This document shows, piece by piece, positions 1 through 47,651 of a DNA stretch of 64,000 nt. Made by a program: the position numbers and the translations under genes. The notes under the pieces are model-generated. The model saw only the letters and a list, made by a program, of their open reading frames with translations, did not search any database and was not told the origin of the DNA. Source of the DNA: Theodoxus fluviatilis (lineage: Eukaryota > Mollusca > Gastropoda > Cycloneritida > Neritidae); assembly GCA_034096865.1 (NCBI GenBank), contig JAWQFJ010006313.1, positions 42,501-106,500 of the forward strand. Direction: 5' to 3'. Within the stretch, counting starts at the first letter, position 1. Each line of letters opens with the position of its first letter.

Positions 1-56
1 AAAGGTCAAGGTCAAGCATGTGAGTCGTATGGGCTTTGCCCTTCTTGTTTTCGCTT
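1..56 (-). repeat. 5' end of receptor-motif (TCAAGGTCA) repeat element, cut by window edge
   Basis: Reverse complement of the start shared by the copies at 17.2, 31.5, 40.8 and 44.2 kb: a conserved head (AAGAAGGGCAAAGCCCATAC), then GACTCACATGC, then the TGACCTTGACCTT motif run. Only the first tens of bases lie in the window. Confidence 0.85.
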
Positions 57-17200: not shown

Positions 17201-20200
17201 TGGACAAACACCATGGTCAAATTAAACAAGAAGGGCAAAGCCCATACGACTCACATGCTTGACCTTGACCTTCACATGTCCTTGACCTTCAGGTGACCTT
17301 AAGGTCAAGGTCAAACAGCTAAACCTAGCAATGACATACACTAAGAACTGCTTTCACATTTTCCATACCAAAATACATGTGACCTTGACCCAAGGTCAAG
17401 GTCATCCAAGGTCATGCAACACAAAGCTGTTAATGCAAGACATAGGAAGCACAATGGTGTTTATTGGCACTTTCTACCATGAGATACGGTCACTTTTAGT
17501 GGTTCACTACCCCATTTTGGTCACATTTCATAAGGGTCGAAGTGACCTTGACCTTGATGATATGTGAACAAATGTGTCTCATGATGAAAGTATAACATGT
17601 GTACTACAATGTTATGAAGTTTGGAAGTTATCTTCCATAGTTCAGGGTCAAGGTCACTTCAAAATATGTATACAATTCAACTTTAAAGACCTCCAGTGAC
17701 CTTGACCTTGAAGCAAGGTCAAATTCCTGTGTACGTTTTTGTACGCCTTGTCATCCTACACTATCATGCCAAATTGGGTGTTGATAGACTTAATAGTCTC
17801 TGAGAAAAATCCAACGTTAAAGTTTTTTACGGATTAAAGGGCGCCCGGACGCCTGGTCTGCCCGGACGCCCGATCGGACGCCTGGACACACGGACGGACG
17901 ACACAGGTGACCTAGTATGAAAGTATAACATGTGTACTACAATGTTATGAAGTTTGGAAAAGTTATCTTTCATAGTTCAGGGTTAAGGTCACTTCAAAAT
18001 ATGTATACAATCCAACTTTAAAGAGCTCCTGTGACCTTGACCTTGATGCAAGGTCAACCAAACTGGTATCAAAAGATAGGGATTACTTTGCCCTATACAC
18101 CATTTATAGGTCAGGTATCCAATCTCAAAAACTTCAGAGAAAATTGGGAAAATGTGAAAAATGGTTGTTTTTTAGACAACATTTATGGCCCCTGCGACCT
18201 TGACCTTGAAGCAAGGTCAAGTCACTATGTGTGTTTATTGACGCCTTGTCATCATACACCATCATGCCAAATTGGGTGTTGATAGACTTAATAGTCTCTG
18301 AGAAAAATTCAACGTTAAAGTTTTTCACGGATGCCCGGACGCCCGACACGGGTGAGTACATAGACTCACTTTTGCTTCGCATGCGAGTCAAAAATATATT
18401 ATAAAACTTTCCCTCATGATGAGCTTCAAATCACCCTCAACTTGTCAGTGCTATATAACAGTCATAACTGCTCTCTCTCATAACAAATGATCATGACAGA
18501 ACTGCTGTAAAAAGTGCCACAATTACCTCCATGAACTGATCAGGAGTCAGCATTCCTTCAGACTTCAGAGTTGCATTGAGTTTGATGACATTTTCTCTGT
18601 CAGTCTCTGCAAGAATCACCACAAACCAGGATTACAAAGACTGTGCAGACAAGTATGAGGAACAACTCTTCTAGAGAGACAGCTGTAACAAAATCAATGG
18701 AGAACTACTTAGAAATGAGTGTAGTTACACACTGTAATGAAAGACACCATACCTACAGAGTGGCAGAACAGCTGGACATGAGCATGGAAGAGAATGAGAA
18801 GCCAAGAGGTCAAAACCCAAGGGCTGAGGGGTCAGACATGGGTGCAGCCTGTCGGGAGGGGTTTCTAACAAGGGGGAGAGGCTAGACAGGAGATGAGCCT
18901 ATATAGGGGGGAGTGTGACAGAAGAGGAGTCTATGAAGGGTGGAGCCAGACAGAAGAGAAACCTATACAGGGTGGAGCCAGACAGAAGAGGAACCTATAC
19001 AGGGTGGAGCCAGAGAGAAGGAAAACCTATACAGGGTGGAGCCAGACAGGAGAGATGCCTATACAGGGTGGAGCCAGACAGAAGAGGTGCCTATACAGGG
19101 TGGAGCCAGACAGGAGAGATGCCTATACAGGGTGGAGCCAGACAGGAGAGGTGCCTATACAGGGTGGAACCAGACAGGAGAGGAACCTATACAGGGTGGA
19201 GCCAGACAGGAGAGGAACCTATACAGGGTGGAGCCAGACAGGAGAGGAACCTATACAGGGTGGAACCAGACAGGAGAGGAACCTATACAGGGTGGTGCCA
19301 GACAGGAGAGGAACCTATACAGGGTGGAACCAGACAGGAGAGGAACCTATACAGGGTGGAGCCAGACAGGAGAGGAACCTATACAGGGTGGAGCCAGACA
19401 GAAGAGGTGCCTATACAGGGTGGAGCCAGACAGGAGAGGTGCCTATACAGGGTGGAGCCAGACAGGAGAGGTGCCTATACAGGTTGGAGCCAGACAGCAG
19501 AGGTGCCTATACAGGGTGGAGCCAGACAGAAGAGGAACCTATACAGGGTGGAGCCAGACAGGAGAGATACAGGGTGGAGCCAGACAGGAGGAACCTATAC
19601 AGGGTGGAGTCAGACAGGAGAGGAACCTATACAGGGTGGAGCCAGACAGAAGAGGAGCCTATACAGGGTGGAGCCAGACAGGAGAGGAACCTATACAGGG
19701 TGGAGCCAGACAGAAGAGGTGCCTATACAGGGTGGAGCCAGACAGGAGAGGAACCTATACAGGGTGGAGCCAGACAGGAGAGGTGCCTATACAGGGTGGA
19801 GCCAGACAGGAGGAACCTATACAGGGTGGAGTCAGACAGGAGAGGTGCTTATACAGGGTGGAGTGTGACAGGAGAGGTGCCTATACAGGGTGGAGTGTGA
19901 CAGGAGAGGAACCTATACAGGGTGGAGCCAGACAGGAGAGATGCCTATACAGGGTGGAGCCAGACAGGAGAGAGGGAGCTTGAAAGGTATGGAGCAAGGC
20001 AGGAGAGAAGGAGCCAGCCATGGGCCATAATGCATAGACGAGAGGTCCTGCAAGGCATAGGCCGATGTCAACAAGTGTCAAGAATGGCATACTTCCCTCA
20101 TTGGCTGGAATGTCTGTGTGTTTTGGGGACCTGCTCCAGTGACACCTGCACAGCCAGCCCTAAGCAGCCTCCACATTGCCTTTACATCTACTTTCACCAT

Positions 20201-23200
20201 GTTGACACAGGCCTATTCCTCACAGGATTCTAGTGTAAGCAATGCATGAAAACAAGAGGTCTGGTGGGGGAAAAATGATAGAGGTGAAGGGTGAGAACTG
20301 GAAGGGGTGAACTATAAAACAAAGTAGTGTCCCCACACAGGAGCAAGAGCCCAGAGAGGAGGGGTCCAGACCTGCAGGTGACAGTGACCTGAAGATGCAG
20401 GGAAGAGAGGACACAACATACCTGATTTCTCCAGGCAACCCAGCAGCAGCTGGGATACCATCTCAGGAACATACCTGCAATGCAACACACAGAAATGAGC
20501 CACTTGCAAACTGCATTTTCCATTAACTCATTCAAGATGCAGTATTTCTTGTGCGTCTGACCCCTGAAATCGCAGCAAATTTGGGTATATTTTGAAAAAT
20601 CGTAATAAGCAATACAGCTACAAATATAATTTTGGTACTGCTGAAAATACTTTTTTTCTTGCCAATAGTCTTATACTGCACCATGTAAAGCAAAAACACC
20701 TCTCTATGTGGTATGGTAATAATTGCAACCACAATAATGGAAGAAAACTGGTTTTTCACCCACAGCTCTTTCTTGGATCACCCACTTTTTATATCTTGAA
20801 TGAAAGCTGTAAAAAATAGTGAATATCAAGGAAGGACACAAGAACACACTGGTGAATTTTTGTTATGATTTTATTTACAAAACTTGAGCTACAGTAAGTT
20901 TTAAGCATGCAAGGATTACGGAAAATTGTAGTTATAATGTTCATGCAAAAAGGGTTGAAAGATCCATGAAAAAATGCACAGAAAGCAAGCATACTGACAT
21001 AGTCCTCTTGGGTGTGGTACTGTTTGAAGCATGGGATGGGTGGAGACAGAGTGGCTTTCCACACTCACTACACTGGAGCTGAGTCAGTTATCAATGATCA
21101 TGCAAAAAAGGTTGAAAGATTCATCAAAATGTACACAGAAAGCAAGCTTAGCTGGCACAGTCCTCTTGGGTGTGGTACTGCTCGAAGCATGGGTGGAGAC
21201 AGAGTGGCTTTCCACATTCAGCACACTGGAGCTGAGTCAGCTTTCTCCTGTTTTTTTTCCTGCCTGCTGGCCCCACTCCTGGCCAGTTTTGCATAGCAAA
21301 CAATACATGCTTTCTGCACTCTGTCCTTTCCTGGGGGTGAGGGGAGGGGCTCAAGGAAGTGCCTGTCTACCAGCCTGTTCACAGTGGCACTGGGACTGGG
21401 AGAGGCACTGGTGCTGGGACTGGGGGAGGCACTGGTGCTGGGACGGGGGGAGGCACTGGTGCTGGGACTGGGGGGAGATGCTGGGACTGGGAGAGGCACT
21501 GGTGCTGGGACTGGGGGAGGCACTGGTGCTGGGACTGGGAGAGGCACTGGTGCTGGGACGGGGGGAGGCACTGGTGCTGGGACTGGGGGAGGCACTGGTG
21601 CTGGGACTGGGGGAGGCACTGGTGCTGGGACTGGGGGAGGCACTGGTGCTGGGACTGGGGGAGGCACTGGTGCTGGGACTGGGGGAGGCACTGGTGCTGG
21701 GACTGGGGGAGGCACTGGTGCTGGGACTGGGGGAGGCACTGGTGCTGGGACCCAGACTAGGGCTGGCAGAGGCAGAAGCAGTGGCACCCACAGGAGCAGC
21801 AACTGGAGTGGGATACACAGCCAGGGAATTGCACACTGACAGTGCAAAAGTCTCCAGGTCCATTGTCTTCCTCCCCTTGGACCTTGTCCACATTGTGCAG
21901 GCAGTGGTCCTGGATCATCACCAGTGTGATGAGGTGGAAAGCCAACTTTTCCCACCACTTCAGTCTTTCTATGAAGAGGCAGATAGGCAATCATCTGGTC
22001 ACTTTTGTCCACACCTGCCATGTTCTTCACATAGTCCAGGACAGCAGTGGGTTTTTCTTTTCTTTCCACTCGAGATGTTGCCATCCTCATCTCAGGCAGA
22101 TGCTTTGTCGTGAGCATGTGGACATCGTGCTTGTCCTTCCAGCGAAGAGCCAGAACCTGATTTTGGCACCTGTAGTCCATGTCATCGCGACGCATGGGCT
22201 GGCTTGTGAGGTCTTTGGGCATCCCCACTCGTTTCGCATGGACTGTGCCCACCACTCCTGTGTCCTCAGCTGCCATAAAAAAGGCCAGGGCAGGGCTGCA
22301 GTAGTAATTGTCTACAAACAGCATATGCCCCTTGCTCTTCAGTGGTGCCATCAGCCGATGACACACATCATATGGGGTGTTGCTGAGGTTTGGCATGTGG
22401 CAGAAGACCTCAAAGTCCCACACGTAGCCGGTGACACTCTCACATACCTCGTAGAGTTTCATTCCCCACTTGGTAGACTTATCCTTCATGTAGACCCTGA
22501 AGGGAAATCTTCCTCTCCAGGGGCAGAGGGCCTCATCTATACAGATGTTCTGACCAGGCTGGTACAGGGCTTTGAAGGTCTGAAAACATAAATGAGAGTA
22601 ATATTAGTCTCTGAAATACAATCTAAAAAAACTAATGGGTGATCATGATGAAAATATTTGTACAACATGTAAATAGATCAATTGCTTGCTTACATTACTG
22701 GCAATAGAAAGAATCGTCTGCTTTTATGGTAAGTTTATATCATAAAAATATGTCTAAGTCAGTAAGTAGACAAGAAACTATTTCTAAAATTGAATACAAA
22801 ATTGAAAACGTTCACTGAAGAAGGGCGTGTGCCCGAAAGACTTTGATTTTGGTGTTTGTCGTGTGTTTGTTTCTTATTGATAGTAAAATTGAATACAAGA
22901 ATGAAAATGTCTTCATGCTACTCACCTGTCTCAGATGATCCCCAAGTGATCTCACTTTGTGCAGAGGATCATGGGCTGGCTGTCCTCTTGGCACGTAGTA
23001 CCAGTTGACGTGCAGGTGGAAAAAACCGAGTACAGCTCGAAAGCGTTCACGCTTTATGAGTTGAGGAGCAAAAAATCAGTGGACCAATAATCAGTGATGC
23101 GGGGTTTGTGCACTATCCCCATGTGTATGAGGATCGCGAGCATTCTCGTGATCTCTTCATCTGTCACGCGAACCCATGTCACGTACATGGATCTTGGAGA

Positions 23201-29087: not shown

Positions 29088-32000
29088 AGCCACCTGAAAG
29101 GTTGTATCAAGAAGAACAGTGCCTTCCCTGAATGAAAGAACAAGCTTCGCCGGATTATGATGCCGAGTTTCGTCGTATGAAAAAAAAAATCGTCGTTTGG
29201 TTCTGAGCGCTCGCTGAGTGTTTAAACCCGGTGTCAGTTCGGGTACATGTGTGTGGGTGAACCCACAAGTGTCTATGGCCTTTAGATCCTCTCTTTCCAA
29301 GGTGTAGTCTTGAGAGAGAGAGAGTGTGTGCTTGTGAATGCCCATTTCTGAGTGGACATCGCTTTTGGGCAGAAATTTTCGTTGGTGGAAAATTCGAGAA
29401 TCGTCGTCACCCATCAGCGTGAACTTGTGAGTAATCGGGGGTCAACTTTGGTTTCGGGTCAGTAAAATTAATTCTCTACTTTTCAGTCAGAAAATAGACT
29501 GATAGAATTGATAGACATTTTCATTCATATTGCCTTAAATTTGATTTTACTCATAATTAAGTCTGATTAAAGAAAATCTTTGATGAACATTGTGTCATGT
29601 CATGCGAGCGTGAGACGAAAGTGAGTGAACAAGAGATACCCCTAGTCACTCAAACAGAAAGAATTTGAGAATTGTGTGAGTGAGTGTGGAGGGAGGTGAT
29701 AGCAGGGCTGCCTACCCTCCTTTTCCGATTTCAGTATTACCAAGTTCCAATTTCCGTATTTCAGTTCCGATTTCAGTATTAAACCGTGCGACAGTGCAAG
29801 AAAACAAAGCAACTTTAATCATTAACCAGGGACCAAAAGATAAAACAAAACATACCTGATTTTATGTACACTATATACAATAGTTCTGCAGCTTGTTTAC
29901 TGTGACAAAGACTGGTAGTAGGCACTTTTCAGGCCTTTCAGGTCTTTGACACTGTAGTTTCTGTCAAGGGCTTGTCCAGGCCTGGACTTGGCTACCACCA
30001 AGGCCTCCAAGGTGTCGGATCCCATGCTGCCTCTGAAGTGTGTTTTGTTCTTTCTCACGACTGAGAAAATGCGCTCACAGTGAGCTGATGAGTGAGGGAT
30101 TGTCATTATGGCAAGCATAACCATGGGGAGGTGTGGGAAGAGGAGGTCTTCCCCTACACCTACACTCAGTTTGTCCAATGCCGCCATTGGGAGGTTCAGT
30201 TCTACTGTCAAGTCTACCATCATCGCCTCAGCTCGAATTACGTCGATGTCGATTTGGGACACTTTCGAAGGAGGCGGTGTAAAATATTCACTGATAGGTT
30301 TTTGCGCTGCTGCGACCTTCTTCTCCTCATTTTTCTTCACATGCTTTGGGCCTTCAACATGCCTTTCGATATCGTTGGCGCCACCACTGGAGATGCTGAA
30401 CTGGTTATCACAAGTCGTACATTTGACAGTGGAGTCAGTGGTGCCGCGGACTATAAATGGATACTTCTCCGTGTACGCTGGAATGTAGACCTGCGACCTC
30501 CGCTGTTTCTTCGATAATTCAGAAACACAATCGCTTGGCTTTCGTTTTGACGCCATTGTTGCACATGAACACTGCACATACCGGCACTCTCCGGAAAAAC
30601 ACTTCGTGCGTTGCGCTTGCGCACTGTACGAAAATGAAGTCACTCGGCAATCTTCGGAAATATTTTCGCGCGCTGCGCCTGCGCATTACAGAACAAACCC
30701 ATTCGGCAATCATCGGTAGACTGCTTCGGAAAACGATTCGCGCACAGCCACAGGCCAACAATTTTGGAAATTATTTTATTATAGTTTTTATTTTGATATT
30801 TCCGGAACGCAAAATAAACTCCCGTATTTTCCGGAACGCTCGCCGATTGTTTTAAATTTCCGGACAAAATACGGAATTTCCGTACGGGTAGGCAGGCCTG
30901 TGATAGCCATGAAACTATCACAACTTGTTCCCTGACTAGAAAGCCAGTTAAAGCAACAAACTGAACAATAGCCAGTACAGACACCATGGCACCAAATCAG
31001 TGCCAGCTACTACACAAACTAATCAAAGAGGTGAAGAGACTTACTTCAGCAGCTTCCAGGCGGATCTGGGAGATGGTTTTTGGTCTGTGGTCAAAAGCTA
31101 CTCTACGTGGCACCCACTGCAAGGACAAACACAAAAAGGCATCTTACTGAGCTTGCACTACTTGTCCCCATTAGGAAATAAAAATTGTGGTTAAGGTAAC
31201 ATGGCAAAGAAAATTTGGGTCAGTAGGTTAGCCAGATTGAATATTAATCAAGCTTTTTTCACTGCAAACACTTTATAAAACTTCAAATATTGGATTCCCA
31301 GAGTGGTCATGAGGTAAGGAAAATGGGATGGCATGCAGTTAGTATTTTACCATTTATATCTTTGTATTCTTTTTTAAGCATTATTAAAACATTTTTTTAA
31401 GTTTAGGGTTGACAGAAAACAAGGGTCAGGTAGGTTACTGTAACCATAACTTTTCTAATCAATTCTGAATGAAAAACTTGTGTGCTACTGCAAGTATTCT
31501 TCCATTTGTCAGGTATTGGAAGCAAAATCTATGAGTGTTCATATTCAAAACAAGAAGGGCAAAGCTCATACGACTCACATGCTTGACCTTGACCTTTATA
31601 TGACTTTGACCTTCGGGTGACCTTCAAGGTCAAGGTCAAACAACTAAACCTACCAATGACATCATACACAAAGAAATGCTTTACACATTTTTCCTACCAA
31701 AATACATGTGACCTTGACCCAAGGTCAAGGTCATCCAAGGTCATGCAACACAAAGCTGTTAATTCAAGACATAGGAAGCACAATGGTGCTTATTGGCACT
31801 TTCTACCATGAGATATAGTCACTTTTAGTGGTTCACTACCCCATTTTGGTCACATTTCATAAGGGTCAAAGTGACCTTGACCTTGATGATATGTGACCAA
31901 ATGTGTCTCATGATGAAAGTATAACATGTGCCCCACATAATTATTAAGTTTGAAACAGTTATCTTCCATAGTTCAGGGTCAAGGTCACTTCAAAACATGT

Positions 32001-33386
32001 ATACAATCCAACTTTGAAGAGCTCCTGTGACCTTGACCTTGAAGCAAGGTCAACCAAACTGGTATCAAAAGATAGGGCTTGCTTTGACCTATATACCACT
32101 TGTAGCTAAGGTCGCCATTCTCAATAACGTGGGAGAAAATTGGGAAAATGTGAAAAATGACTGTTTTTGAGACCACATTTATGGCTCCTGTGACCTTGAC
32201 CTTGAAGCAAGGTCAAGTCACTGTGTATGTTTTTTGAGGCCTTGTCATCATACACCATCATGCCACATTTGGTGTTGATAGACTTGATAGTCTCCGAGAA
32301 AAATCCAATGTTTAAGGTTTTTACGCCCGGACGGACGGACGCCCGGACGGACGGACGCCCGGACGGACGGACGGACAGACGACACGGCTCAGTACATAGA
32401 CTCACTTTTGCTTCGCATGTGAGTCAATAATACACAGGATCTCAAGGGTATACTGAAAGAATGCAATACTTGACATCATGTAACACATGTGAACAAACAC
32501 AAAAAGCACAGCTTACTTTGTTGTTTCGTAGGTCCACACAATCCCGCAGCATGAACCGAATCCTGGCTGGCAGATCTGAGTGGACGATTAGCCGCTTGAT
32601 GCGATCAAAGTACTGATTCATCCAGGCCTGAAATCAAGACACAGACAAAGAAAGTCATAAAGAGCCAGTGACAAAATATCAGCAATACAAAGCACCCCAC
32701 GCAAACAAATTCAGAAGCTGTAAAACCATTTCTTTTTCAGTAGCCCATTCATTACTCCAAAGATTGTTATTAGTAACCTCAAACAGCCTGCATCTTTTTC
32801 TTCCATAGTTATAAGTAAGGCATCTTGCGAGGACCTGCATGACTCACCTTCGCTCGGGCTGTATCCAAACGAGGCCCCACTGTCCGCATTATCTGGCACA
32901 GACATTCAAGGTCTTCAGACGTGTCCCGAATCTGCGTATGTTTCTTCTTCTCCAACAGCTGCTTGATGCACTTGTGGAGAATCCCTTCATGCAGCATCTG
33001 TAGCTTCCCCAGCTCACCTGAATAGAGAATACCTCACAAGTCAGCCCATTCTAAAACTCGGGTGAAAATGTCCAGGACAAGGGGAAGTATAAGCTCCATT
33101 ATAGCCAACGCAGCCTTAGTGAAAATCAATCAGATGCAATTGATCAGACTTGCCATTCTTGTTGACAAAAAAGAAGAAGCAGGAATCAAGATGGCAACAA
33201 AAAGGAGGCAGCATTATGCATTGGAGACTGATATATTGCAGGAACCAACATACAAAATTACCGCAATCTCCAATTCTCTTTTAGTGCCTACAAATAGCTT
33301 TGCTAGCAGTCAATCAGCTTGAGGAACATGCCACTCATCTTTACCGAGGGAAGCGACAGCGTAACCCAACATTACATGAAACTCGT

Positions 33387-34012: not shown

Positions 34013-34131
34013 ACAAGAAGGGCAAAGCCCATACGACTCACATGCTTGACCTTGACCTTTACATGACCTTGACCTTCAGGTGACCTTCAAGGTCAAGGCC
34101 AATCAACTACACCTAGCAATGACACCATACA
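34013..34131 (+). repeat. Receptor-motif element, left part, interrupted by hAT
   Basis: Starts AAGAAGGGCAAAGCCCATAC and stops at ACACCATACA where the hAT terminus begins. The right part resumes at 39086, about 450 bp further along the element. Confidence 0.8.
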
Positions 34132-34369
34132 CAAGGTTCGTACAGGTTTTTAGATACAAAATTCCATGACTTTTCCATGACCTTCAACAACATTTTCCAT
34201 GACCTAGCGTACTGTGATACATGACAATTTTAAAGAGAAAAGTGTAGGGCGCACGACCAAACTCACGCACAATACACCCGTTGTAAAAAAATTCTAATTC
34301 TTGTTATTATTTTTACAGCAGATTGATTCAAAAACTGACAAATGCAGAAAATTTTCAAACAAGTACTCC

Positions 34370-34986
34370 TTAACTCTCTGGCAACGTAACGCCCCATATG
34401 GGGCGTTAGGAACAAAAAATTCCTGTATTCTCACCAAAGGTCTAAGGGAGGCAACTCCAGTTTAGAATTATGTAGTAACCATATTTCCACAGTGAGTTAC
34501 CTTTCTTTATAATTTCTTTTGAGGGGAGTTTGAATCAGTGAATTTTTTATGTGAACACCCTATGTTTTGCAAAAATGGCCGACAACTACTTTTCCGTGAA
34601 AATCTATCAATTTATATAGTGATTTTTCTTTTCTAGGTGCCTTTTTTATATTGCAAATGCTATCAGAATATAGGTAAATATATTGGCATTGTTTTTGCAT
34701 TTCAGATTTTTTTTTTTGAAGGCACCATTCCAGCATTTTTCAATTCTTGCAACTTGACTGACGATTTTTGAACTTTTTTTTTGTTTTTTGTTTTTGCTGA
34801 TTACATGCATTATTTCAGTAGATATAACTCAAATCATGCACATTGAAACATTTTGATCATGATTTGTTTGAATTAAGTGAATAAATATCTTTTATTTGAT
34901 ATATAGCTTTTGTCATTATTTCATGGCTTTCTATTTTTGTTAGATTTTTGAAAATGCTTGAAAAACCTACGTTGCGAGTGAGTTAA
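34370..34986. mobile_element. piggyBac-type MITE, TTAA-bounded
   Basis: TTAACTCTCTGGCAACGTA at left and inverted TTAACTCACTCGCAACGTA at right; 617 bp, no coding capacity. Contains the short palindrome CGCCCCATATGGGGCG near its left end. Confidence 0.8.
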
Positions 34987-35159
34987 CGCACGCTGAATGT
35001 GGTAATCGAGCACAAACAGGTGGAAAATTTCCGCCTATTTTCTCCTTTCAAGCGCACAATCCGGGCGCTAGACAAAAAGTAGATTCATCGTACATTAACA
35101 TCGAATATAGCGTTGGAAGGGGGAAATCTTGTAGAATCCGAGGGTGTTTTTGTACGAAA

Positions 35160-35640
35160 GCGGGAGTGAGCAAATTTTAACAAAATGTCCAATGACGTTC
35201 GAACTTTCATCCATAACTCGTCTTTCGATTTTCACCGGAAGTTCAAACATACACCGAACGAAAGATCAATCTTTCCTCTAATGAGTAGTTAAGTTTCAAC
35301 TTGATCAAATGAGAAACTTCAACGGACGAGTATTTAGAAGAGACCAACCCGAGTCGCGAAATGCAAACTCCGTCGAGCCACCGCGAGTCGGTAGTGGCGG
35401 AGGGTGTTTTTTTTTTTTACGTAATCGGCTTGTATGTTCTCAACGGAAATAAGACGGATTAACACAAAACTACACGACACATGTTCTTGAAACCTTCTGC
35501 TTCATAAACAACTTTCATTCTTGTTTTTATTCACAATATTTTGTGGATTGTCCACAATTAGCCATGAAAGTGAAGTGGTATTGCCGAGTGCATTTTGGCT
35601 AGTACTGTAGTAGCGCAAAGATTTGATACAAATTACCATG
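35160..35640 (-). repeat. Interspersed repeat leader (shared with 52170-52560)
   Basis: On the minus strand it shares TCATGGCTAATTGTGGACAA, TTCAAGAACATGTG, AAGCCGATTACGTAAAA-like sequence and GCGACTCGGGTTGGTCTCTT with 52170-52560. At that site it leads into a tandem array; here the array is absent. Confidence 0.7.
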
Positions 35641-36079
35641 GAATCCTACCACTAGTTAAAAAAAATTAGACAACTCAGAAAGACTTTCATCTTTCATGTT
35701 ACATTGGTATTTTGTGTTATTGATATGTGCGAATCCTAGAAAAAAGTGGATTCTATCGAACCGACGGCCACTTCCGGTCTGATGAAATTTCTTCGAACAT
35801 CGCGTGCGGCGTCTATTTAGCACTCGCTGAAGGTCCCGAGTTCTACAATACTTTTTCCAATATGTGCAAAATATTGCAATAAATATCTTCCTATCTGATT
35901 GTTCTAGCATAAACTGAAACAAAAACCTTAATAAACTAACCAATTTCAGCTGATTTGTCCGTCAAAATCGCATCTGCGCCGTCACGCTCTTACTCGCCAT
36001 GAATCATTGTGTGATTTTGACGGTCATGCTATTTACCAAAATGGCGCTAATGTCTTCGAAATGGCTTAGAAATGAGCAT

Positions 36080-37602
36080 ATATCCCACTCGCTTCGGATG
36101 GAACGCGCACGTTGCATCCCCCCTTCGCTTCGGGAGCGACGCACGCGTCTCATCTTACCCTCGTGGTGTTTACGTCGAGATCTAAAATTAGCAACGGTAA
36201 TGGCCGACTTATCGCAATGCCTGCTGGGAAGCAGAGTGACTGCGCACTACGCTAGTCCAAGTTTGATCAAAATCGGACAAGTTTTAGCTGTGTTGTGGCG
36301 ATTTTTGTCGAGATTTCGACTGACGTTCTGAATTTTTTCGCGTCATGTCCGATTTCGCATCGGATAAGAGCGAAGGAAGCGACATCGATGCCAATTTTAA
36401 TTCTGATTTCGACGATGTCGATGCGCCGGAAGATCCGCTTCAATAGGACCAGTGGATGCGAGATGTTGGAGGAGGAATCGTCGGAGGAAGAGTTTCTAGG
36501 CTTCCAAGGATCGTGGCAGACAGAAAATTTTCGTTCTCGCACACGACACGCGTCATGTCCGACTCAGCATCGGATGAGAGCGAAGGAAACGACATTGATG
36601 CCGATTCTAATTCTGATTTCGACGATGTCGATGCGCCGGAAGATCCGCTTCAATAGGACCAGTGGATGCGAGAGATGTTGGAGGAGGAAGAGTTTCTAGG
36701 CTTCCAAGGATCGTGGCAGACAGAAAATTTTCGTTCTCGCACGTGCTCAAGGAGTGAAGATTGACATCCCCTCGGACGCAAAGCCTCTTCATGTCTTCTC
36801 TCTGATCTTCACACACGCGATGTGGGAAAACGACTTGTGACAGAGACAAATCGATATGCTGAGAGAGAGAGAGAGAGAGAGACAGAGGAATCCACCTCCT
36901 GCCAGCTCCAAGTGATGTAAAAAAAATCATGATTTTTGAAAGACTTTATCACTTGGTAATGCATGCTTATTTTTGAAAGACTTTATCACTTGCTAATTAA
37001 TCCATGCCTATTTTTGAAAGACTTTATCACTTGCAAATGCATGTCTTGCACCTTTTCTCTTTATATTATCTGTCATGTCATGCATGTGCTTCATGTTTAC
37101 CTTTATCTGAGTGAAAAAAGGCATGGTGAAAATTACTTTGTGATCATGTAAAAAAAAAATTTTTTTTTGCGATTTCATGTCATGTACCATATTTGCTGTA
37201 TCTCATGAACAAATTGATTTAGAACTTTGCATTTTGTTTCAGCAGATAGCTAAATGAGTAAATTATCCATTAAGAGTCTGTTTTGAGCTTATTTGGGAGG
37301 TTTTCTTTCTAAAAACCATAATTTTAAACTGAAAATCAAGGTGAATGTGTCCGTTTTTGCACTATTTTCTAATTTTAAAAAATCATTCCTAAATTTTAAC
37401 TTGTATTGTGTTGTATTTGATTGTATGAGCTTGTAGCAATGGATGTCAGCTTTAAGACAATGCTTATTTTGTGTCTCTGTGATTGTTACAAGTGGAGTTA
37501 ATAAATTTTTTGTAAACGTACCCGACTTCTTCAGTTTTTCTGAAAAAGGCTCAGGTTTTCAGGACTCTTTTGTGTATACCGTCATAGTGTCTAATGGGTT
37601 AA
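36080..37602 (+). mobile_element. piggyBac family 1 deletion derivative
   Basis: Same ends as the complete element at 53714-56372. The right terminus CTAATGGGTTAA (37591-37602) is intact; the left (TATCCCACTCGCTTCGGATG) has lost its TTAACCCATT identity. It retains the transposase start region, then most of the gene is deleted and the 3' non-coding part follows (AAAAGGCATGGTGAAAAT, AGTGGAGTTAATAAATTT). Confidence 0.85.
36343..36760 (+). pseudogene. piggyBac family 1 transposase N-terminus, tandemly duplicated
   Basis: The first ~70 codons (ATGTCCGATTTCGCATCGGA ...) appear twice (from 36343 and 36555, about 212 bp apart), both with a TAG shortly after GAAGATCCGCTTCAA. The acidic SEGxDIDAxS start equals that of the intact transposase. 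Confidence 0.85.
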
Positions 37603-37689
37603 ATCGTTATCCCCTTCTTGAATATGATATATTTAAGCTATTCTAATTAAACCAGAACTATATTTGACCAAATTACGTTAGAAACAGCA

Positions 37690-38697
37690 ACATTTTGAAA
37701 CAGACATGCGGTCGCCATTTCGATCCAGCGCCAAATGGTAAATAGCAAAATCGGACATGGATATCCAGCTGTTTCTTCTGAAGTTCAGCATTCAGGGACT
37801 CATCAAAGAGCAGCACCAGAGAATCAGAAGACCGGGCCTTTGCCTTGAGCATGTCTAAGAAATGTGGCCCCAGACCAAAAGTTATCAAGTACCGGTGTCG
37901 CGAAATATTCTTTCCCTGTGCTATTTTATGGCGGAAGTGCTTCTGCGCATGCGCGAAATTGGGTGCGAAAATAAAAATTAATGTTAGTCTTTCCAACTTT
38001 CACGTCACCGTTTGCTACATTAGCAACACTGTTTTTACACTGGTTTGATCAATTCAGTGGTTTAAATCATGGCATGCAGATTGTTGTACACAATTTCGCG
38101 CATGCGCAGAAGCACTTCCGCCATAAAATATCACAGGGATAAAATATTTCGCGACACCGGGCTTTGCTTTCACTCAAGGCAAACTTGGAGGCGATGACAC
38201 TGTCGGGAAAAATGCGACGGAACAGCTCGTTCATTCCTTTGGCACTGGAGAATGAGAAGTGGGAGATGACCATTTTCAAAGTCCACAAAATTTCTGATTT
38301 CAGTGTGTCCTCTGTTGTCAAGAAAGTGTCAATCCCAGTAGATCTACTGCCACTGCCAGTGGGTGCAGGCCTAGTTTCGACCGGCGTAGCAGCGCCAGCT
38401 GGAACCACCACCTCTGAAGTACTCTCTGTCTCAGCATTTTTTGCAGTTTGAACAAAATCTGATATTCGTGTTTGACGTTTGCTCTTTTCTTCTAGGTGTT
38501 TTTTAGCACGCGCCTGGTGCGCGACACCTTTCATGTGGCTTTTCAACGCTGCCGCTTCCATGTTGGATACAGCAAAGTCTTTTTCACAAAATCGGCACTT
38601 TGCCATCCCATCCACTCTCGCTCGCATGACCCACTCACGGTATTCAGGGTCTCCTGTCCAAGAGTCTTGAAAGCGACACTTTCCAGGCATGATGATA
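37690..38697 (-). pseudogene. hAT transposase fragments split by a MITE
   Basis: The N-terminal part from 38697 (MPGKCRFQDSWTGDPEYREW) has a BED-type finger (CRFCEKDFAVSN...LKSHMKGVAH) and runs to FALSESKA near 38165. After the inverted-repeat insert (37893-38163) it resumes with FGLGPHFLDMLKA, LVLLFDESLNAELQKKQLDI and HVRF, typical of the hAT catalytic region. The rest was lost to further insertions. Confidence 0.75.
37893..38163. mobile_element. MITE with ~65-bp inverted repeats
   Basis: CCGGTGTCGCGAAATATTCT at left and its inverted near-copy at right (AATATTTCGCGACACCGG), including GGCGGAAGTGCTTCTGCGCA in both arms; about 130 bp between arms. It interrupts the hAT transposase. Confidence 0.75.
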
Positions 38698-39085
38698 ATC
38701 TGATTCTCAAAGAAACACTGCACCACAAACAATACAAGCTCTTTTCACTCTGTCCTCGCTTGAACCAACTGACCGGACTGGCGTGGAAATGAAACGAGGT
38801 CACCTAGCCAAAGAACCAATCAGGAAGCAGAAGGCACACGAGCCTTCAGAATTAATCAATGGGATGCAAGGGCACGTTTTCCTGACGTGCTCAGCGTTTA
38901 AAATTAGATTGAGAGTATCGCGCGAAGCACAGCCTAGAAAACGTATTTTTTTCATTCTTTTTTTTCTTTCTTAAATTCCATGACTTTCCATGACCTAAGT
39001 TGAAATTCCATGACTTTCCAGGCCTGGAAAATGAAAAATCAAATTCCATGACTTTCCAGGTTTTCCATGACCTGTACGAACCCTG

Positions 39086-39517
39086 TTATTAAGTTTGAAA
39101 GTTATCTTCCATAGTTCAGGGTCAAGGTCACTTCAAAATATGTATACAATCAAACTTTGAAGAGCTCCTGTGACCTTGACCTTGAAGCAAGGTCAACCAA
39201 ACTGGTATCAAAAAATAGGGCTTCCTTTGCCCTATATATCATGTATAGGTGAGGTATCCAATCTCAAAAACTTCAGAGAAAATTGAGAAAATGTGAAAAA
39301 TGGCTGTTTTTTAGACAACATTTATGGCTCCTGCGACCTTGAAGCAAGGTCAAGTCGCTATGTATGTTTTTTGAGGCCTTGTCATCATACACCATCATGC
39401 CAAATTGGGTGTTAATAGACTTAATAGTCTCCTAGATAAATCCAACGTTAAGTTTTTTACGCCCGGACGGACGACATGGGTGAGTACATAGACTCACTTT
39501 TGCTTCGCATGTGAGTC
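39086..39517 (+). repeat. Receptor-motif element, right part
   Basis: Resumes at TTATTAAGTTTGAAAGTTAT and ends TTTGCTTCGCATGTGAGTCA; carries DR0 motifs such as TGACCTTGACCTTGA near 39171. Confidence 0.85.
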
Positions 39518-39702: not shown

Positions 39703-39725
39703 TGTGTGTGTGTGTGTGTGTGTGT

Positions 39726-39786
<61 letters not shown>

Positions 39787-39787
39787 G

Positions 39788-39853
<66 letters not shown>
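39703..39853. repeat. (GT)n(GA)n microsatellite
   Basis: Compound repeat at the start of segmental unit 1. Confidence 0.95.
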
Positions 39854-39856
<3 letters not shown>

Positions 39857-40323
39857 CGTGCATTTCCAACAGCGAAAAAAAGTGTAGAGTCAGCGGCAAA
39901 ATTTGGGGTCAGTTGGTTGACCCCAAACAAATTTTTTGCCTTATAATAACTGCATAGGGAGACATGGTGGGTCTAGTGTACCCCCAACCCCTGGGGGTCT
40001 GAACAATGTGTGCTTTATGCACAAACTGGTGTGGTCCATCTACCAGCAGCTTATTCTAGCACGATTTCAGGAATCTAGACAGGGAGCTCAGGCTTGAGTA
40101 CACAGAGGCAATAATCTCGTCAAGTTGCTCAGAGAGGGCAAGTACCATTCATCATAGCTCCTTTTCCCATCTACTGCTGCTCTCAACCACACCTGCATGA
40201 ATGAATGGAGGTTTATGGTCTTTTAATCATTCCAGGTTATGCAAGTGCATAGACTTCAAAATGAACAGAGCTGGTTAGAGTAAAAACAAATAGAGCCTTG
40301 ATGCGTTTCAGGTAACATGGAAA

Positions 40324-40666
40324 ACAAGAAGGGCAAAGCCCATACGATTCACATGCTTGACCTTGACCTTTATATGACCTTGACCTTCAGGTGACCCTCA
40401 AGATCAAGGTCAAACAACTAAACCTACCAATGACATCATACACTAAGAAATGCTTTACACTTTTTTCCTACAAAATACATGTGACCTTGACCCAAGGTCA
40501 AGGTCATCAAAGGTCATGCAACACAAAGCTGTTAATTCAAGACATAGGAAGCACAATGGTGCTTATTGGCACTTTCTACCATGAGATACGGTCACTTTTA
40601 GTGGTTCACTACTCCATTTTGGTCACATTTCATAAGGGTCAAAGTGACCTTGACCTTGATGCAGAC
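40324..40666 (+). repeat. Receptor-motif element, 3'-truncated copy
   Basis: Head to CCTTGACCTTGATG, then replaced by unrelated sequence (CAGACCTGTTTACCTTAAGT). A complete copy begins at 40798. Confidence 0.85.
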
Positions 40667-40797
40667 CTGTTTACCTTAAGTTGTGCACAATAGGGAGATG
40701 GCGATTCAAAAATTCGGGAGATTTCAATAAAAAGCGGGAGATTTTTATTTTTAGATATGTGTACCATCCCAGGTCACGAACTGCATAACAATTGAAT

Positions 40798-41620
40798 AAC
40801 AAGAAGGGCAAAGCCCATACGACTCACATGCTTGACCTTGACCTTTATATGACCTTGACCTTCAGGGTCAAGGTCAAACAACTAAACCTACCAATGACAT
40901 CATACACAAAGAAATGCTTTACACATTTTTCCTACCAAAATACATGTGACCTTGGCCCAAGGTCAAGGTCATCCAAGGTCATGCAACACAAAGCTGTTAA
41001 TTCAAGACATAGGAAGCACAATGGTGCTTATTGGCACTTTCTACCATGAGATATAGTCACTTTTAGTGGTTCACTACCCCATTTTGGTCACATTTCATAA
41101 GGGTCAAAGTGACCTTGACCTTGATGATATGTGAACAAATGTGTCTCATGATGAAAGTATAACATGTGCCCCACATAATTATTAAGTTTGAAACAGTTAT
41201 CTTCCATAGTTCAGGGTCAGTGTCACTTCAAAATATGTATACAATCCAACTTTGAAGAGCTCCTGTGACCTTGACCTTGAAGCAAGGTCAACCAAACTGG
41301 TATCAAAAGATAGGGCTTGCTTTGACCTATATACCACTTGTAGCTAAGGTCGCCATTCTCAATAACGTGGGAGAAAATTGGGAAAATGTGAAAAATGACA
41401 GTTTTTGAGACCACATTTATGGCTCCTGTGACCTTGACCTTGAAGCAAGGTCAAGTCACTATGTATGTTTTTTGAGGCCTTGTCATCATACACCATCATG
41501 CCACATTTGGTGTTGATAGACTTAATAGTCTCCGAGAAAAATCCAACGTTTAAGTTTTTTACGCCCGGACGGACGACACGGCTCAGTACATAGACTCACT
41601 TTTGCTTCGCATGTGAGTCA
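40798..41620 (+). repeat. Receptor-motif element, complete copy
   Basis: Near-identical to 31551-32427, with a shorter CGGACGG tract before the tail. Confidence 0.87.
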
Positions 41621-41709
41621 AAAATCAGCTGAAAGTGGAATAAAAAACTCAGAAATCAGCTGAAACGCCGATAAGTCTCATCTCTGATCAGGGAGGCGAA
41701 AAGTCAAAT

Positions 41710-41945
41710 TCTCTATCTCTCTCTCTCTCGCGCGCGCGCGCGCTTTCTCTCGCTCTGTCTCTCTCGCGTGCGCTTCTCTATCTCTCTCTCTGTCTCTCTC
41801 GCGTGCGCTTCTCTATCTCTCTCTCTCTCGCGCGCGCGCGCTCTTTCTCTCTCTCTGTCTCTCTCGCGTGCGCTTCTCTATCTCTCTCTCTCTCGCGCGC
41901 GCGCAAGTTCTCTCTCTCGCGCGCGCGCACACAAGTTCTCTCTCG
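41710..41945. repeat. (CT)n/(CG)n microsatellite
   Basis: Alternating TCTCTCT and CGCGCGCG runs; the alternating purine-pyrimidine CG runs are the kind that can adopt Z-DNA. Confidence 0.93.
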
Positions 41946-41949
41946 CCTC

Positions 41950-42486: not shown

Positions 42487-43258
42487 AAAACAAGAAGGGC
42501 AAAGCCCATACGACTCACATGCTTGAACTTGACCTTTATATGACCTTGACCTTCAGGTGACCCTCAAGATCAATGTCAAACAACTAAACCTACCAATGAC
42601 ATCATACACTAAGAAATGCTTTACACATTTTTCCTACCAAAATACATGTGACCTTGACCCAAGGTCAAGGTCATCAAAGGTCATGCAACACAAAGCTGTT
42701 AATTCAAGACATAGGAAGCACAATGGTGCTTATTGGCACTTTCTACCAGGAGATATGGTCACTTTTAGTGGTTCACTACTCCATTTTGGTCACATTTCAT
42801 AAGGGTCAAAGTGACCTTGACCTTGATGATATGTGACCAAATGTGTCTCATGATGAAAGTATAACATGTGCCCCACAAAATTATTAAGCTTGAAACAGTT
42901 ATCTTCTATAGTTCAGGGTCAAGGTTACTTCAAAATATGTATACAATCCAACTTTGAAGAGCTTCTGTGACCTTGACCTTGAAGCAAGGTCAACCAAACT
43001 GGTATCAAAAGATAGGGCTTACTTTGCCCTATATACCATATAAAGGTGAGGTATCCAAATCTCAAAAACTGCAGAGAAAATTGAGAAAATGTGAAAAATG
43101 ACTTTTTTAGACAACATTTATGGCCTTTGCGACCTTGACCTTGAAGCAATGTCAAGTCACTATGTATGTTTTTTGAGGCCTTGTCATCATACACCATCAT
43201 GCCACATTTGGTGTTGATAGACTTAATAGTCTCTTAGAAAAATCCAACGTTAAAGTTT
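42487..43258 (+). repeat. Receptor-motif element, 3' end replaced by microsatellite
   Basis: Runs from the head to CCAACGTTAAAGTTTTC, then passes into (GA)n, losing the GGACGG and TTTGCTTCGCATG tail. Confidence 0.87.
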
Positions 43259-43429
<171 letters not shown>

Positions 43430-44151: not shown

Positions 44152-44997
44152 AAAACAAGAAGGGCAAAGCCCATACGACTCACATGCTTGACCTTGACCT
44201 TTATATGACCTTGACCTTCAGGTGACCTTCAAGGTCAAGGTCAAACAACTAAACCTACCAATGACATCATACACTAAGAAATGCTTTACACATTTTCCTA
44301 TCAAAATACATGTGACCTTGACCCAAGGTCAATGTCATCCAAGGTCATGCAACACAAAGCTGTTAATTCAAGACATAGGAAGCACAATGGTGCTTATTGG
44401 CACTTTCTACCATGAGATATGGTCATTTTAGTGGTTCACTACCCCATTTTGGTCACATTTCATAAGGGTCAAAGTGACCTTGACCTTGATGATATGTGAC
44501 CAAATGTGTCTCATGATGAAAGTATAACATGTGCCCCACATAATTAATAAGTTTGAAACAGTTATCTTCCATAGTTCAGGGTCAAGGTCACTTCAAAATA
44601 TGTATACAATCCAACTTTGAAGAGCTCCTGTGACCTTGACCTTGAAGCAAGGTCAACCAAACTGGTATCAAAAGATAGGGCTTACTTTGCCCTATATACC
44701 ATATATAGGTCAGGTATCCAATCTCAAAAACTTCAGAGAAAATTGAGAAAATGTGAAAAATGACTGTTTTTTAGACAACATTTATGGCCCCTGCGACCTT
44801 GACCTTGAAGCAAGATCAAGTCACTATGTATGTTTTTTGAGGCCTTGTCATCATACACCATCATGCCAAATTGGGTGTTGATAGACTTAATAGTCTCCGA
44901 GAAAAATCCAACGTTAAAGTTTTTCACGGACGCCCGGACGCCCGGACTGACGACACGGGTGAGTACATAGACTCACTTTTGCTCCGCATGTGAGTCA
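44152..44997 (+). repeat. Receptor-motif element, complete copy
   Basis: Complete head and tail (tail TTTGCTCCGCATGTGAGTCA). Confidence 0.87.
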
Positions 44998-45072: not shown

Positions 45073-46106
45073 ACAAGAAGGGCAAAGCCCATACAACTCA
45101 CATGCTTGACCTTGACCTTCAGGTAACCTTCAAGGTCAAGGTCAAACAACTAAACCTAGCAATGACATCATACACTAAGAAATGCTTTACACATTTTTCC
45201 TACCAAAATACATGTGACCCAAGGTCAAGGTCATCCAAGGTCATGCAACACAAAGCTGTTAATTCAAGACATAGGAAGCACAATGGTGCTTATTGGCACT
45301 TTCTACCATGAGATATGGTCACTTTTAGTGGTTCACTACCCCATTTTGGTCACATTTCATAAGGGTCAAAGTGACCTTGACCTTGATGATATGTGACTAA
45401 ATGTGTCTCATGATGAAAGTATAACATGTGTTCTACATCGTAATGAAGTTTGGAAGAGTTATCTTCCATAGTTCAGGGTCAAGGTCACTTCAAAATATGT
45501 ATACAATCCAACTTTGAAGAGCTCCTGTGACCTTGACCTTGAAGCAAGGTCAATCAAACTGGTATCAAAAGATAGGGATTACTTTGCCCTATATACCATA
45601 TATAGGTCAGGTATCCAATCTCAAAAACTTCAGAGAAAATTGGGAAAATGTGAAAAATGGCTGTTTTTTAGACACATTTACGGCCCCTGCGACCTTGACG
45701 CAAGGTCAAGTCACTATGTATGTTTTTGTACGCCTTGTCATCATACACCATCATGCCAAATTGGGTGTTGATAGACTTAATAGTCTCCGAGTAAAATCCA
45801 ACGTTAAAGTTTTTTACTGATGGCAGGACGCCTGGACGCCCGGATGAACGACACGGGTGACCTAGTATGAAAGTATAACATGTGTACTACAATGTTATGA
45901 AGTTTGGAAGAGTTATCTTCCATAGTTCGGGGTCAAGGTCACTTCAAAATATGTATACAATCCAACTTTAAAGAGCTCATGTGACCTTGACCTTGAACCA
46001 AGGTCAAGTCACTATGTATGTTTTTGTACGCCTTGTCATCCTACACCATCATGCCAAATTGGGGGTTGATAGACTTAATTAATAGTCTCCGAGAAAAATC
46101 CAATGT
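45073..46106 (+). repeat. Receptor-motif element with duplicated middle module, tail lost
   Basis: Like the 17226 copy it has two GTATAACATGTGT modules (45418 and 45872). Its tail is replaced at TTTAA by the inverted-terminus element at 46107. Confidence 0.85.
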
Positions 46107-47651
46107 TTAAGGGGGGACACGGCCTGCAGAATTTCATGAAAAATTTTCAGAAATTGAGTTTCGTGTTAAGCGCGGATTTGGAATCTACAACATCTCCGCT
46201 ACACGTGTGTGCGATCGATTTTGCTGGCTTAGGTTTCAAAGTATTTTAAACCAATTTGTTTTGTAAGGTACCCACCGCTAGATTTTAAAAAAGTACTAAC
46301 CAGGAAGCCAAAATGCACAGATTTGAAAGCTTAGTTTCAGCATCTTCCTTCCAAAGAACGCCACATGTTTGGTATCGCATCGAAGCTTCATTTCCCGGCT
46401 TTACGTTGCAACTGTTTCCGGTACCGAAGAATAATTACCGAAGGCACACGAAGTACAAATCGGAGGGCAGTGCAAACCAATGGAAAGCTTCGAAATAACG
46501 GCCTGTCTCTCAGCTAGGCTCTGATTGGCCGCTTGTGTGCGTGATCACAGCGTGATCAGGCGGAAGTGGCTGGCGGAAACGGCCGAACCGTACTTCGACT
46601 GGCGGAAGTGGTAGGCGGAAACGGCCGAACCGTACTTCGGCTGTTTCCGGCCTGAACGTCGGCCGCCGAAGCAAACATCGGTTCTTTCCGAAGTGTGCTT
46701 ACAGCGCGCGAAAGTTTGCGCTATCTCGATCGAGACAATTCCACGGAAGATGCAGAAATGGACGGAAAAAGCAAGCCCAGAAAAGAAATTAAGTCGTGTC
46801 AACAGCCTCTGGAGGTTGTGATACAACAGCGATCGCGTTCTTATCTACAGACACGGCACTGAACGAAGCTGTTATCACGGCGGAAGTTGCCGTGATTACG
46901 CGATTCTTACAGAAAACGGGAATGTTTTGCTACAGGTGATGCTTTTCACCTAATTATTCTGATATTTTGAATTAAGATAATAAGTTGAAAGTTTGCTACA
47001 ATGATAACAAATAAACGACACATTCAATGAGTTATGTTATTAAATTGTATCTGTTATGGTTGAGTTGTAGTTAACGTTTAATCTTTCTCAAACTTTAAAG
47101 TCAATTTTCTCATAATGTGGTTTTTATTTCAACGGTAGTGATTTTCTCCCCAAAAATAAAGTCACTTAGGATTGAGATAGCTTTCTGAAATTGTGTGTGT
47201 ATATGTATGAATAAATACTGCATTCAATAAGACCAATCAGAAAGGTGTAGCTGAATTTGCTTAATTTTTGTAAAAATTTAATTATGTTATGCCCGGAGCA
47301 CATTTTTTGGTTACTTTTTCTAAATTCCACTAAAATTAGTTAGAAGTGTTAGTAATCCACTTATTATATCTTATTGAATAATATAGACCTTCTTCTTTGT
47401 TTACAATCATTGTTGATCATAAAAAGGTTATTAATTAAAATTTCACGGAGGGGAGAAAATTGGTATGTTTATTTTTCAGTTATTTTGCTATAACACATGA
47501 ACAACTAAGTCTTCAGCAATAAAATTTTGTTTAAATATACCTTCCAGTGTGTTTGTATTCTGTATAAAATTTCATTAGTATAGCTTTCATATTTGCTGAG
47601 TTATGATTTATTTTCTATTAATCCGTTTTTGTACGCCATGTCCCCCCTTAA
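46107..47651. mobile_element. TTAA-bounded element with GGGGGGACAYGGC termini
   Basis: Left TTAAGGGGGGACACGGC and right inverted TTAAGGGGGGACATGGC enclose 1.54 kb without coding content. The TTAA ends suggest a non-autonomous piggyBac-type element. A 50-bp tandem duplication (GGCGGAAACGGCCGAACCGT) lies at about 46558-46640. Confidence 0.65.

What the first reader, a model, noticed from the sequence alone, without database searches (positions are those of the whole stretch)
31551..32427. Repeat family carrying dense nuclear-receptor motifs (TCAAGGTCA and DR0)
Each copy (17226-18390, 31551-32427, 34013 plus 39086-39517, 40324-40666, 40798-41620, 42487-43258, 44152-44997, 45073-46106, and 1-56) is crowded with TCAAGGTCA on both strands. 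The 31.5 kb copy has about a dozen exact 9-mers in ~880 bp, where chance would give far less than one. Many overlap as TCAAGGTCAAGGTCA, an AGGTCA direct repeat with zero spacing. Established: single extended half-sites bind ERR and NR5A (SF-1/FTZ-F1); the DR0 form binds GCNF/NR6A1, a germ-cell receptor. Inference: this repeat spreads receptor sites through the genome, possibly exploiting germline or gonad expression, and could add hormone- or metabolism-linked control to host genes such as eIF4G2.
Basis: partly seen in the sequence, partly recalled or inferred. Interest (0 to 1): 0.85.

Follow-up and report, generated by a model that had tools for sequence, protein, structure and literature searches.

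The report
Snail Helentron relic with receptor-like motifs
The motif-packed repeat is a family of short, protein-less rolling-circle jumping elements in what looks like a sea-snail genome; the motifs match hormone-receptor binding sites exactly, but what the sequence shows directly is that they are joints at which the element's internal modules are lost and swapped, and receptor binding is untested.

Summary
In detail: 79 exact TCAAGGTCA occur in the window, 79 of 79 inside this repeat; the 31.5-kb copy has 12 against 0.013 expected from shuffles. Read on the minus strand the repeat has the anatomy published for Helentron non-autonomous elements (HINE/DINE-1-like): T-rich end, 11-bp subTIR, complementary IR, GTCC microsatellite, central modules, 3' subTIR, palindrome, T-rich junctions, no evident TSD. 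A Littorina saxatilis predicted protein reads through a related copy. The motifs sit in five inverted clusters; four cores are phased 163/156/163 bp, joined by spacers with little detectable mutual similarity. Seven of seven internal indels of 5 bp or more touch a motif (chance 0.0004, or 0.003 for the 5 distinct places); two copies lack the same 163-bp module, core to core. Motif columns diverge less than the rest (ratio 0.31-0.68, modest support), GG contacts 3.6% versus 3.9% over all copies. Best reading: a new HINE family whose palindromic cores are recombination/slippage joints; receptor binding is plausible in vitro, regulation unshown. Transposons spreading receptor sites are already known (Alu DR2, SINE B1/NR5A2).

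The parts
31553..32427 (-). HINE copy c31 (the finding), both ends present, between eIF4G2 exons
   Evidence: 12 exact TCAAGGTCA
32415..32425 (-). 5' subTIR (GACTCACATGC read on the minus strand) of c31
   Evidence: I23 pair
32399..32405 (-). IR complementary to the 5' subTIR (GTGAGTC on minus), 9 nt from it
   Evidence: (hairpin z -2.8)
32323..32381 (-). GTCC-type microsatellite
32184..32216 (-). module core m4: 33 bp, DR0 plus everted half-site, hairpin
   Evidence: D2 family; DNA fold z -5.0
32021..32053 (-). module core m3: 33 bp, identical to m4 in this copy
   Evidence: 100%; fold z -2.8
31973..31990 (+). single motif site without a local hairpin
   Evidence: z +0.8
31845..31901 (-). module core m2: inverted repeat of 28-nt arms including DR0
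   Evidence: I1; fold z -6.6
31702..31745 (-). module core m1: inverted DR0 with further half-site
   Evidence: fold z -4.5
31584..31642 (-). motif cluster m0, abutting the 3' subTIR
   Evidence: fold z -4.9
31572..31582 (-). 3' subTIR (GCATGTGAGTC on minus)
   Evidence: I23; exact in 7 of 9 copies with this end
31557..31567 (-). 3' palindrome GGGCTTTGCCC, one mismatch in this copy (and no predicted fold here, z +0.6), perfect in 8 of 9 copies with this end
17227..18389 (-). HINE copy c17, long form; first array lacks one 163-bp module
34014..34134 (-). HINE copy, 3' end fragment
39086..39517 (-). HINE copy, 5' end fragment, across a ~5 kb stretch from 34014-34134
40323..40660 (-). HINE copy truncated at its 5' side
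40799..41619 (-). HINE copy, both ends present
42489..43257 (-). HINE copy, ending at a GA microsatellite
44154..44996 (-). HINE copy, both ends present
45073..46112 (-). HINE copy, long form, 5' end missing; second array lacks the same 163-bp module
1..51 (+). HINE copy, 3' end only, opposite orientation

Best explanation
A family of non-autonomous Helentron-type rolling-circle elements (HINE, DINE-1-like), about 0.8-1.2 kb, mostly on the minus strand, with about 7 insertions in the window. The motif density comes from its central modules: each carries an inverted core built of AGGTCA/DR0 units, and the cores are phased about 160 bp apart. Shown: the cores are the element's joints; insertions and deletions fall in them, a whole module is missing core-to-core in two arrays, and mosaic divergence blocks lie between cores. 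Inferred: slippage, template switching during rolling-circle copying, and recombination between the palindromic direct repeats keep the cores alike and multiply them while spacers diverge or are replaced. The DNA would probably bind ERR or FTZ-F1 in vitro, since the sites are consensus, but I expect this to be a by-product rather than the reason for the motif.
For: HINE anatomy element by element: compared with passages of PMC4067079 and PMC7492417. Related copy in Littorina saxatilis: the protein P0121 reads through subTIR, IR, module m4 and its core. Five of five clusters of c31 fold as hairpins (DNA z -2.8 to -6.6); three of three tested spacers do not. Spacers: of 10 pairs, s0/s4 scores above most shuffles (local, 6 of 500 as good); for the other 9 at least 57 of 500 shuffles are as good. 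m3 and m4 cores are identical over 33 bp in c31 and c40.8, including 15 bp outside any half-site, and differ at 3 of 33 in c44. 7 of 7 internal indels of 5 bp or more touch a motif, 6 of 7 at both breakpoints; c17a and c45b each lack columns 486-648. Randomly placed, 7 of 7 would touch with probability 0.0004, and 5 of 5 distinct places with 0.003. c31 versus c44: 19 differences in the 120 columns 526-645 (between cores m3 and m4; block chosen after seeing the profile), 16 in 642 elsewhere.
Against: One motif site (31973-31990) has no local hairpin. Motif columns are somewhat better conserved than the rest, which receptor binding would also explain. In the five stems no pair was kept by changes on both sides; 7 cells kept by one change, 11 broken, 543 unchanged. 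No autonomous partner and no empty site could be tested: the genome search did not complete. The 3' subTIR lies about 22 bp from the end, nearer than the 38-60 bp given for mite HINEs. The 4-core phasing was picked after seeing it (0.0009 in a simple simulation). The two 163-bp losses, and the two 6-bp losses at columns 643-648, may each be one ancestral event; gap placement in repeats depends on the aligner.
Confidence: 0.55

Rival explanations
1. The cores are kept because they bind nuclear receptors (NR5A/FTZ-F1, ERR, or NR6A on the DR0). Receptors open chromatin in germ line or early embryo, helping the element to be copied, and insertions then carry receptor sites into host genes.
For: Exact consensus TCAAGG(C/T)CA (PMC11102866, passages); 40 DR0 and 18 ER7 pairs in the copies; with one copy per insertion motif columns diverge 0.31-0.54 as much as the rest, 9-39 of 766 shifts as low, GG 6 of 236 versus 172 of 4047 outside; 9 of 9 copies with the 3' end keep at least one intact half-site beside the 3' subTIR; 4 further degenerate half-sites in motif-masked c31, 22 of 2000 shuffles as many. 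Precedents: NR5A2 on SINE B1, DINE-1-like elements supplying MSL sites (PMC4067079, passages); two gastropods have the receptors.
Against: AGGTCA over all copies is not significantly protected (135 of 766; 107 of 811 with the consensus mask); GG 11 of 302 versus 194 of 4951 over all rows; conservation between m3 and m4 covers 15 bp outside the half-sites; no binding or expression data.
Confidence: 0.2
2. The inverted cores matter as DNA hairpins for rolling-circle transposition (recognition or pausing by the Helentron Rep or a host factor), and the AGGTCA letters themselves are incidental.
For: Five of five clusters are inverted repeats with z -2.8 to -6.6; m2 has 28-nt arms extending beyond the motif; one cluster abuts the 3' subTIR.
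Against: A motif site without hairpin exists; in m3 the outer half-site of the DR0 lies outside the stem yet is intact in 9 of 9; no pair kept by changes on both sides in any of the five stems. Pairing follows trivially when one motif occurs on both strands.
Confidence: 0.15
3. Passive hexamer expansion: (AAGGTC)n slippage made short arrays of no role at all, spread by copying of the element.
For: 6-bp and 17-bp losses of motif units in several copies; DR0 is the commonest arrangement.
Against: Arrays stay at two to three units, appear on both strands at fixed places, and the cores share non-motif letters. TRF reports only arrays of about 2.3 copies of a 17-bp unit there.
Confidence: 0.1

Closest known systems
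Cg_HINE elements of Crassostrea gigas (PMC7492417; passages and section 6 read)
   Same: 11-12 bp subTIR, 7-12 bp IR 1-12 nt away, GTCY/GTCC microsatellite, central repeats mostly of 140-180 bp, 3' subTIR followed by palindrome, T-rich insertion without TSD; double arrays occur
   Different: Cg_HINE monomers within a cluster differ by 8.5-21%; here modules share little beyond the core. AGGTCA content of Cg_HINE not available to me
DINE-1 / HINE-Mo of Drosophila and mite (PMC4067079; passages read)
   Same: subTIR, IR (DINE-1), microsatellite, central repeats, 3' stem-loop, TT preference
   Different: 3' subTIR 38-60 bp from the end in mite, about 22 bp here; sequences not compared; no AGGTCA cores mentioned in the passages read; DINE-1-like elements supply MSL sites in D. 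miranda
BIV160/Cg170 satellite family and pearl elements (PMC5139131; passages read)
   Same: ~160-bp units that keep two motifs while the rest diverges; junctions loosely near conserved motifs, though that paper found no statistical support; related repeats are carried by Helentron-type elements
   Different: Sequences of those motifs were not in the text I could read, so identity with AGGTCA is untested
Alu DR2 retinoic acid elements (PMC1785376; abstract and section list seen) and SINE B1/NR5A2 (PMC11102866; passages)
   Same: Mobile elements that spread nuclear-receptor sites
   Different: Retrotransposons, not rolling-circle elements; binding shown there, not here

Membership tests
HINE (non-autonomous Helentron) | subTIRs of at least 11 bp at both ends | tested here: met
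   GACTCACATGC/GCATGTGAGTC; 3' copy exact in 7 of 9, 5' copy exact in 4 of 5
HINE (non-autonomous Helentron) | IR complementary to the 5' subTIR within a few bases | tested here: met
   GTGAGTC 9 nt away in 5 of 5 copies with this end
HINE (non-autonomous Helentron) | GTCY-type microsatellite after the IR | tested here: met
   GTCC repeats of variable length, longest in c31, weak in c17
HINE (non-autonomous Helentron) | central tandem repeats | tested here: inconclusive
   four cores spaced 163/156/163, but spacers mostly not alike
HINE (non-autonomous Helentron) | palindrome at the 3' end after the subTIR | tested here: met
   GGGCTTTGCCC perfect in 8 of 9 copies with this end; only a 4-bp stem, and c31, the imperfect one, gives no fold
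HINE (non-autonomous Helentron) | insertion in TT, oligo-T ends, no TSD | tested here: met
   five insertions with both ends (34/39 taken as one) show T-rich 5' ends, TT across the 3' junction and no evident duplication by inspection; empty sites not available
HINE (non-autonomous Helentron) | autonomous Helentron partner with the same ends | not testable with these tools
   The genome search unanswered in 10 of 10 tries; 9 of 82 window ORFs of 110 aa or more (and one exon) scanned with Pfam, none a Helitron Rep/helicase
canonical Helitron | 5' TC and 3' CTRR, insertion A|T (recalled) | tested here: not met
   3' end reads CTTGT|T and 5' end is T-rich
TIR transposon or MITE | terminal inverted repeats with TSD (recalled) | tested here: not met
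   inverted repeats are subterminal; no TSD evident
nuclear receptor response element | consensus sequence TCAAGGTCA / DR0 | tested here: met
nuclear receptor response element | contact bases conserved above background | tested here: inconclusive
   whole motif lower than rest in most sets; GG 3.6% versus 3.9% over all rows, 2.5% versus 4.3% with one row per insertion
nuclear receptor response element | receptor binding and regulatory effect | not testable with these tools
   no binding or expression data
BIV160/Cg170 satellite family | the two conserved motifs of that family | not testable with these tools
   sequences not in the text I read

The most novel reading that the evidence does not exclude
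A Helentron-type element in snails has evolved a nucleosome-spaced array of DR0 and everted AGGTCA cores that recruits a germline or early-embryo nuclear receptor (FTZ-F1/NR5A, HR4/NR6A or ERR), so that selection on the element keeps the cores while its spacers turn over; every insertion then plants a strong receptor platform, for example within eIF4G2.
Probability: 0.15. Interest if true: 0.75.

Novelty: new member of a known kind. Interest (0 to 1): 0.4.

Why it matters
It gives the repeat a class (Helentron-type, non-autonomous) with ends that can be used to look for copies and for a Rep-coding partner. It turns the receptor idea into a countable prediction, core versus spacer decay genome-wide. 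And it offers a case for an open question about mollusc satellite-like repeats: why short motifs persist while the rest of ~160-bp units diverges. If receptors do bind, it would join Alu and SINE B1 as a rolling-circle example.

Tried and rejected
Simple satellite: rejected, 9 of 10 spacer pairs no better than at least 57 of 500 shuffles. Chance: rejected. Canonical Helitron, TIR/MITE: ends do not fit. Searches that led nowhere: two viral-contig scans and one genome-contig scan for core and end patterns, 0 hits (the last is prokaryotes only); a second translated stretch found no protein. Full-text search for TGACCTTGACCTT gave 10 papers; by title none concerns a mollusc repeat, and the two I opened were a primer and a toy example. 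GACCTTGACC plus mollus gave only that primer paper. AGGTCA plus nuclear receptor plus transposable elements plus mollusc gave 0. The Helitron/receptor search counted 538 papers with at least 3 of 4 terms; 15 were listed, each with 0 mentions of Helitron. So these searches showed me no report of AGGTCA cores in mollusc HINEs; sequences printed in figures or supplements, and subscription papers, were not seen.

The conservation test was run as 12 set/motif combinations; between 9 of 766 and 135 of 766 shifts were as low as observed. An earlier run with a consensus mask gave 107, 22 and 40 of 811 for divergence and 209, 135 and 89 of 811 for the share of variable columns. Hence 'modest'. In the same run motif G letters on the plus strand varied more than other G (10 of 220 versus 28 of 840) and A, C, T less. 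A first by-position count was made against the motif letters at loci where any copy has the motif; one search repeats it against the consensus and is the one used. In the one-per-insertion sets I dropped 40.3 and 42 (duplicates of the 44 insertion). Two 8-bp microsatellite gaps were left out of the indel count. 1-51 was not in the alignment.
Full report
Observation. The count is right and far above chance. All 79 exact TCAAGGTCA in 64 kb lie in the 6.5 kb of repeat copies. In the copies (1-51 left out) there are 135 AGGTCA half-sites; 78 carry the TCA extension, and adjacent pairs are mostly DR0 (40), ER7 (18), DR5 (9) and DR4 (6). Because a DR0 supplies the TCA of its second half-site, 9-mers are not independent counts.

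Identity. The copies with both ends read, on the minus strand and with small changes between copies, T-rich end, GACTCACATGC, 9 nt, GTGAGTC, GTCC microsatellite, modules, GCATGTGAGTC, GTAT, GGGCTTTGCCC, TTCTTGT|T. This is the order given for HINE/DINE-1 (PMC4067079, passages) and for Cg_HINE of oyster, down to the 7-12 bp IR at 1-12 nt and the GTCC/GTCY microsatellite (PMC7492417, passages). Five insertions with both ends show T-rich junctions and no evident duplication. Departures: the 3' subTIR is about 22 bp from the end, against 38-60 bp in the mite, and the 31.5-kb copy has a mismatch in its 3' palindrome. The autonomous partner could not be sought.

Host and spread. The only protein match to a translated stretch of the element is a 178-aa Littorina saxatilis hypothetical protein (E 3e-20, 77% over 59%; a second stretch found none). 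It contains FLTHMRSKSESMYSP followed by the m4 module and LTLLQGQG, the same as the translated 5' end and core of the 17-kb copy apart from scattered changes. So related copies exist in that snail; that the window is from Littorina or a relative is inference. Two stretches on the minus strand at 16.5-16.9 and 32.5-32.6 kb match eIF4G2 best (3l6a, E 7e-24; 4iul, E 1.2e-4). The copies at 17.2 and 31.5 kb lie between them, so probably in introns, and in the gene's own orientation.

Anatomy of the motif. In the 31.5-kb copy the motifs form five clusters plus one single site. Cores m1-m4 start 163, 156 and 163 bp apart. Of 10 spacer comparisons only s0/s4 stands out (local score, 6 of 500 shuffles as good); for the other 9 at least 57 of 500 shuffles do as well. 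Each of the five clusters folds as a hairpin with DNA parameters (z -2.8 to -6.6), three spacers do not (-1.6 to +0.3), the single site does not (+0.8). Across copies no stem pair is kept by changes on both sides, so there is no covariation support. m3 and m4 agree over 33 bp in c31 and c40.8, 15 of them outside half-sites, so what is shared is a core and not merely a receptor motif.

What the copies show. Among 11 aligned pieces, 7 internal indels of 5 bp or more outside the microsatellite all touch a motif, 6 at both breakpoints; two remove columns 486-648, core to core. Random placement gives 7 of 7 with probability 0.0004, and 5 of 5 distinct places with 0.003. Divergence is mosaic: c31 versus c44 differ at 19 of 120 columns between cores m3 and m4 and at 16 of 642 elsewhere (block chosen after seeing the profile); another block near columns 351-425 separates c17b and c45a from c44. 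The cores therefore act as joints for loss and exchange of modules.

Test of the receptor idea. Over 22 half-site loci, 131 of 158 cells are intact. Divergence from consensus: AGGTCA columns 2.6% versus 3.8% (135 of 766 shifts as low), TCAAGGTCA 1.8 versus 3.9 (27 of 766), DR0 1.6 versus 3.9 (28 of 766); with one copy per insertion 2.1 versus 3.9 (39), 1.5 versus 3.9 (9), 1.2 versus 3.9 (12 of 766). The GG contact positions: 11 of 302 (3.6%) versus 194 of 4951 (3.9%) outside over all rows; 6 of 236 (2.5%) versus 172 of 4047 (4.3%) with one row per insertion. There is modest protection of the motif as a whole and no clear extra protection of the contact bases; conversion or slippage between cores would lower divergence too. 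The test does not decide.

Comparison with the known. Spreading of receptor sites by mobile elements is established (Alu DR2, abstract; NR5A2 on SINE B1, passages), and DINE-1-like elements supply MSL sites in Drosophila miranda. Biomphalaria and Lottia have ERR, FTZ-F1, HR39 and GCNF-group receptors. BIV160/Cg170 units keep two motifs while the rest diverges; whether those are AGGTCA cores I could not see. The element is best filed as a new HINE family; the core-only modules are its unusual trait.

Verdict. Real, strong pattern; known class; the receptor role is open and the less likely of the two main readings on present evidence.

Noticed in passing
34135-39085: About 5 kb between two HINE fragments, with inverted ends GGTTCGTACAGG / CCTGTACGAACC; contains a weak BED zinc-finger ORF (38070-38744, minus, below Pfam cut-off), so possibly a hAT-type transposon (inference).
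   Followed up: partly
54437-56128: Open 564-aa piggyBac-type transposase frame on minus (PF13843, E 7e-96). Among the named proteins in the 120 of 544 listed, fish ones come closest (64% to Aldrovandia affinis), ahead of molluscs (52% Saccostrea cucullata), which may hint at horizontal transfer.
   Followed up: partly
21221-22603: Second, partial piggyBac-type transposase on minus (PF13843, E 2e-43).
   Followed up: no
29900-30685: hAT C-terminal dimerisation region on minus (PF05699, E 7e-08).
   Followed up: no
39720-44150: A unit of GA microsatellite, 26-bp GGGTCTAGTGTACCCCCAACCCCTGG satellite and further shared DNA recurs together with HINE copies 40.3, 42.5 and 44.2 kb, apparently a local segmental duplication.
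   Followed up: partly
12232-13940: Very long 18-bp tandem array (95 copies, GACAAGACAAAGACGGAG).
   Followed up: no
17913-18389 and 45864-46112: Two long-form HINE copies share a similar duplication junction (GGTGACCTAGTATGAAAG), so they probably belong to one long subfamily.
   Followed up: partly
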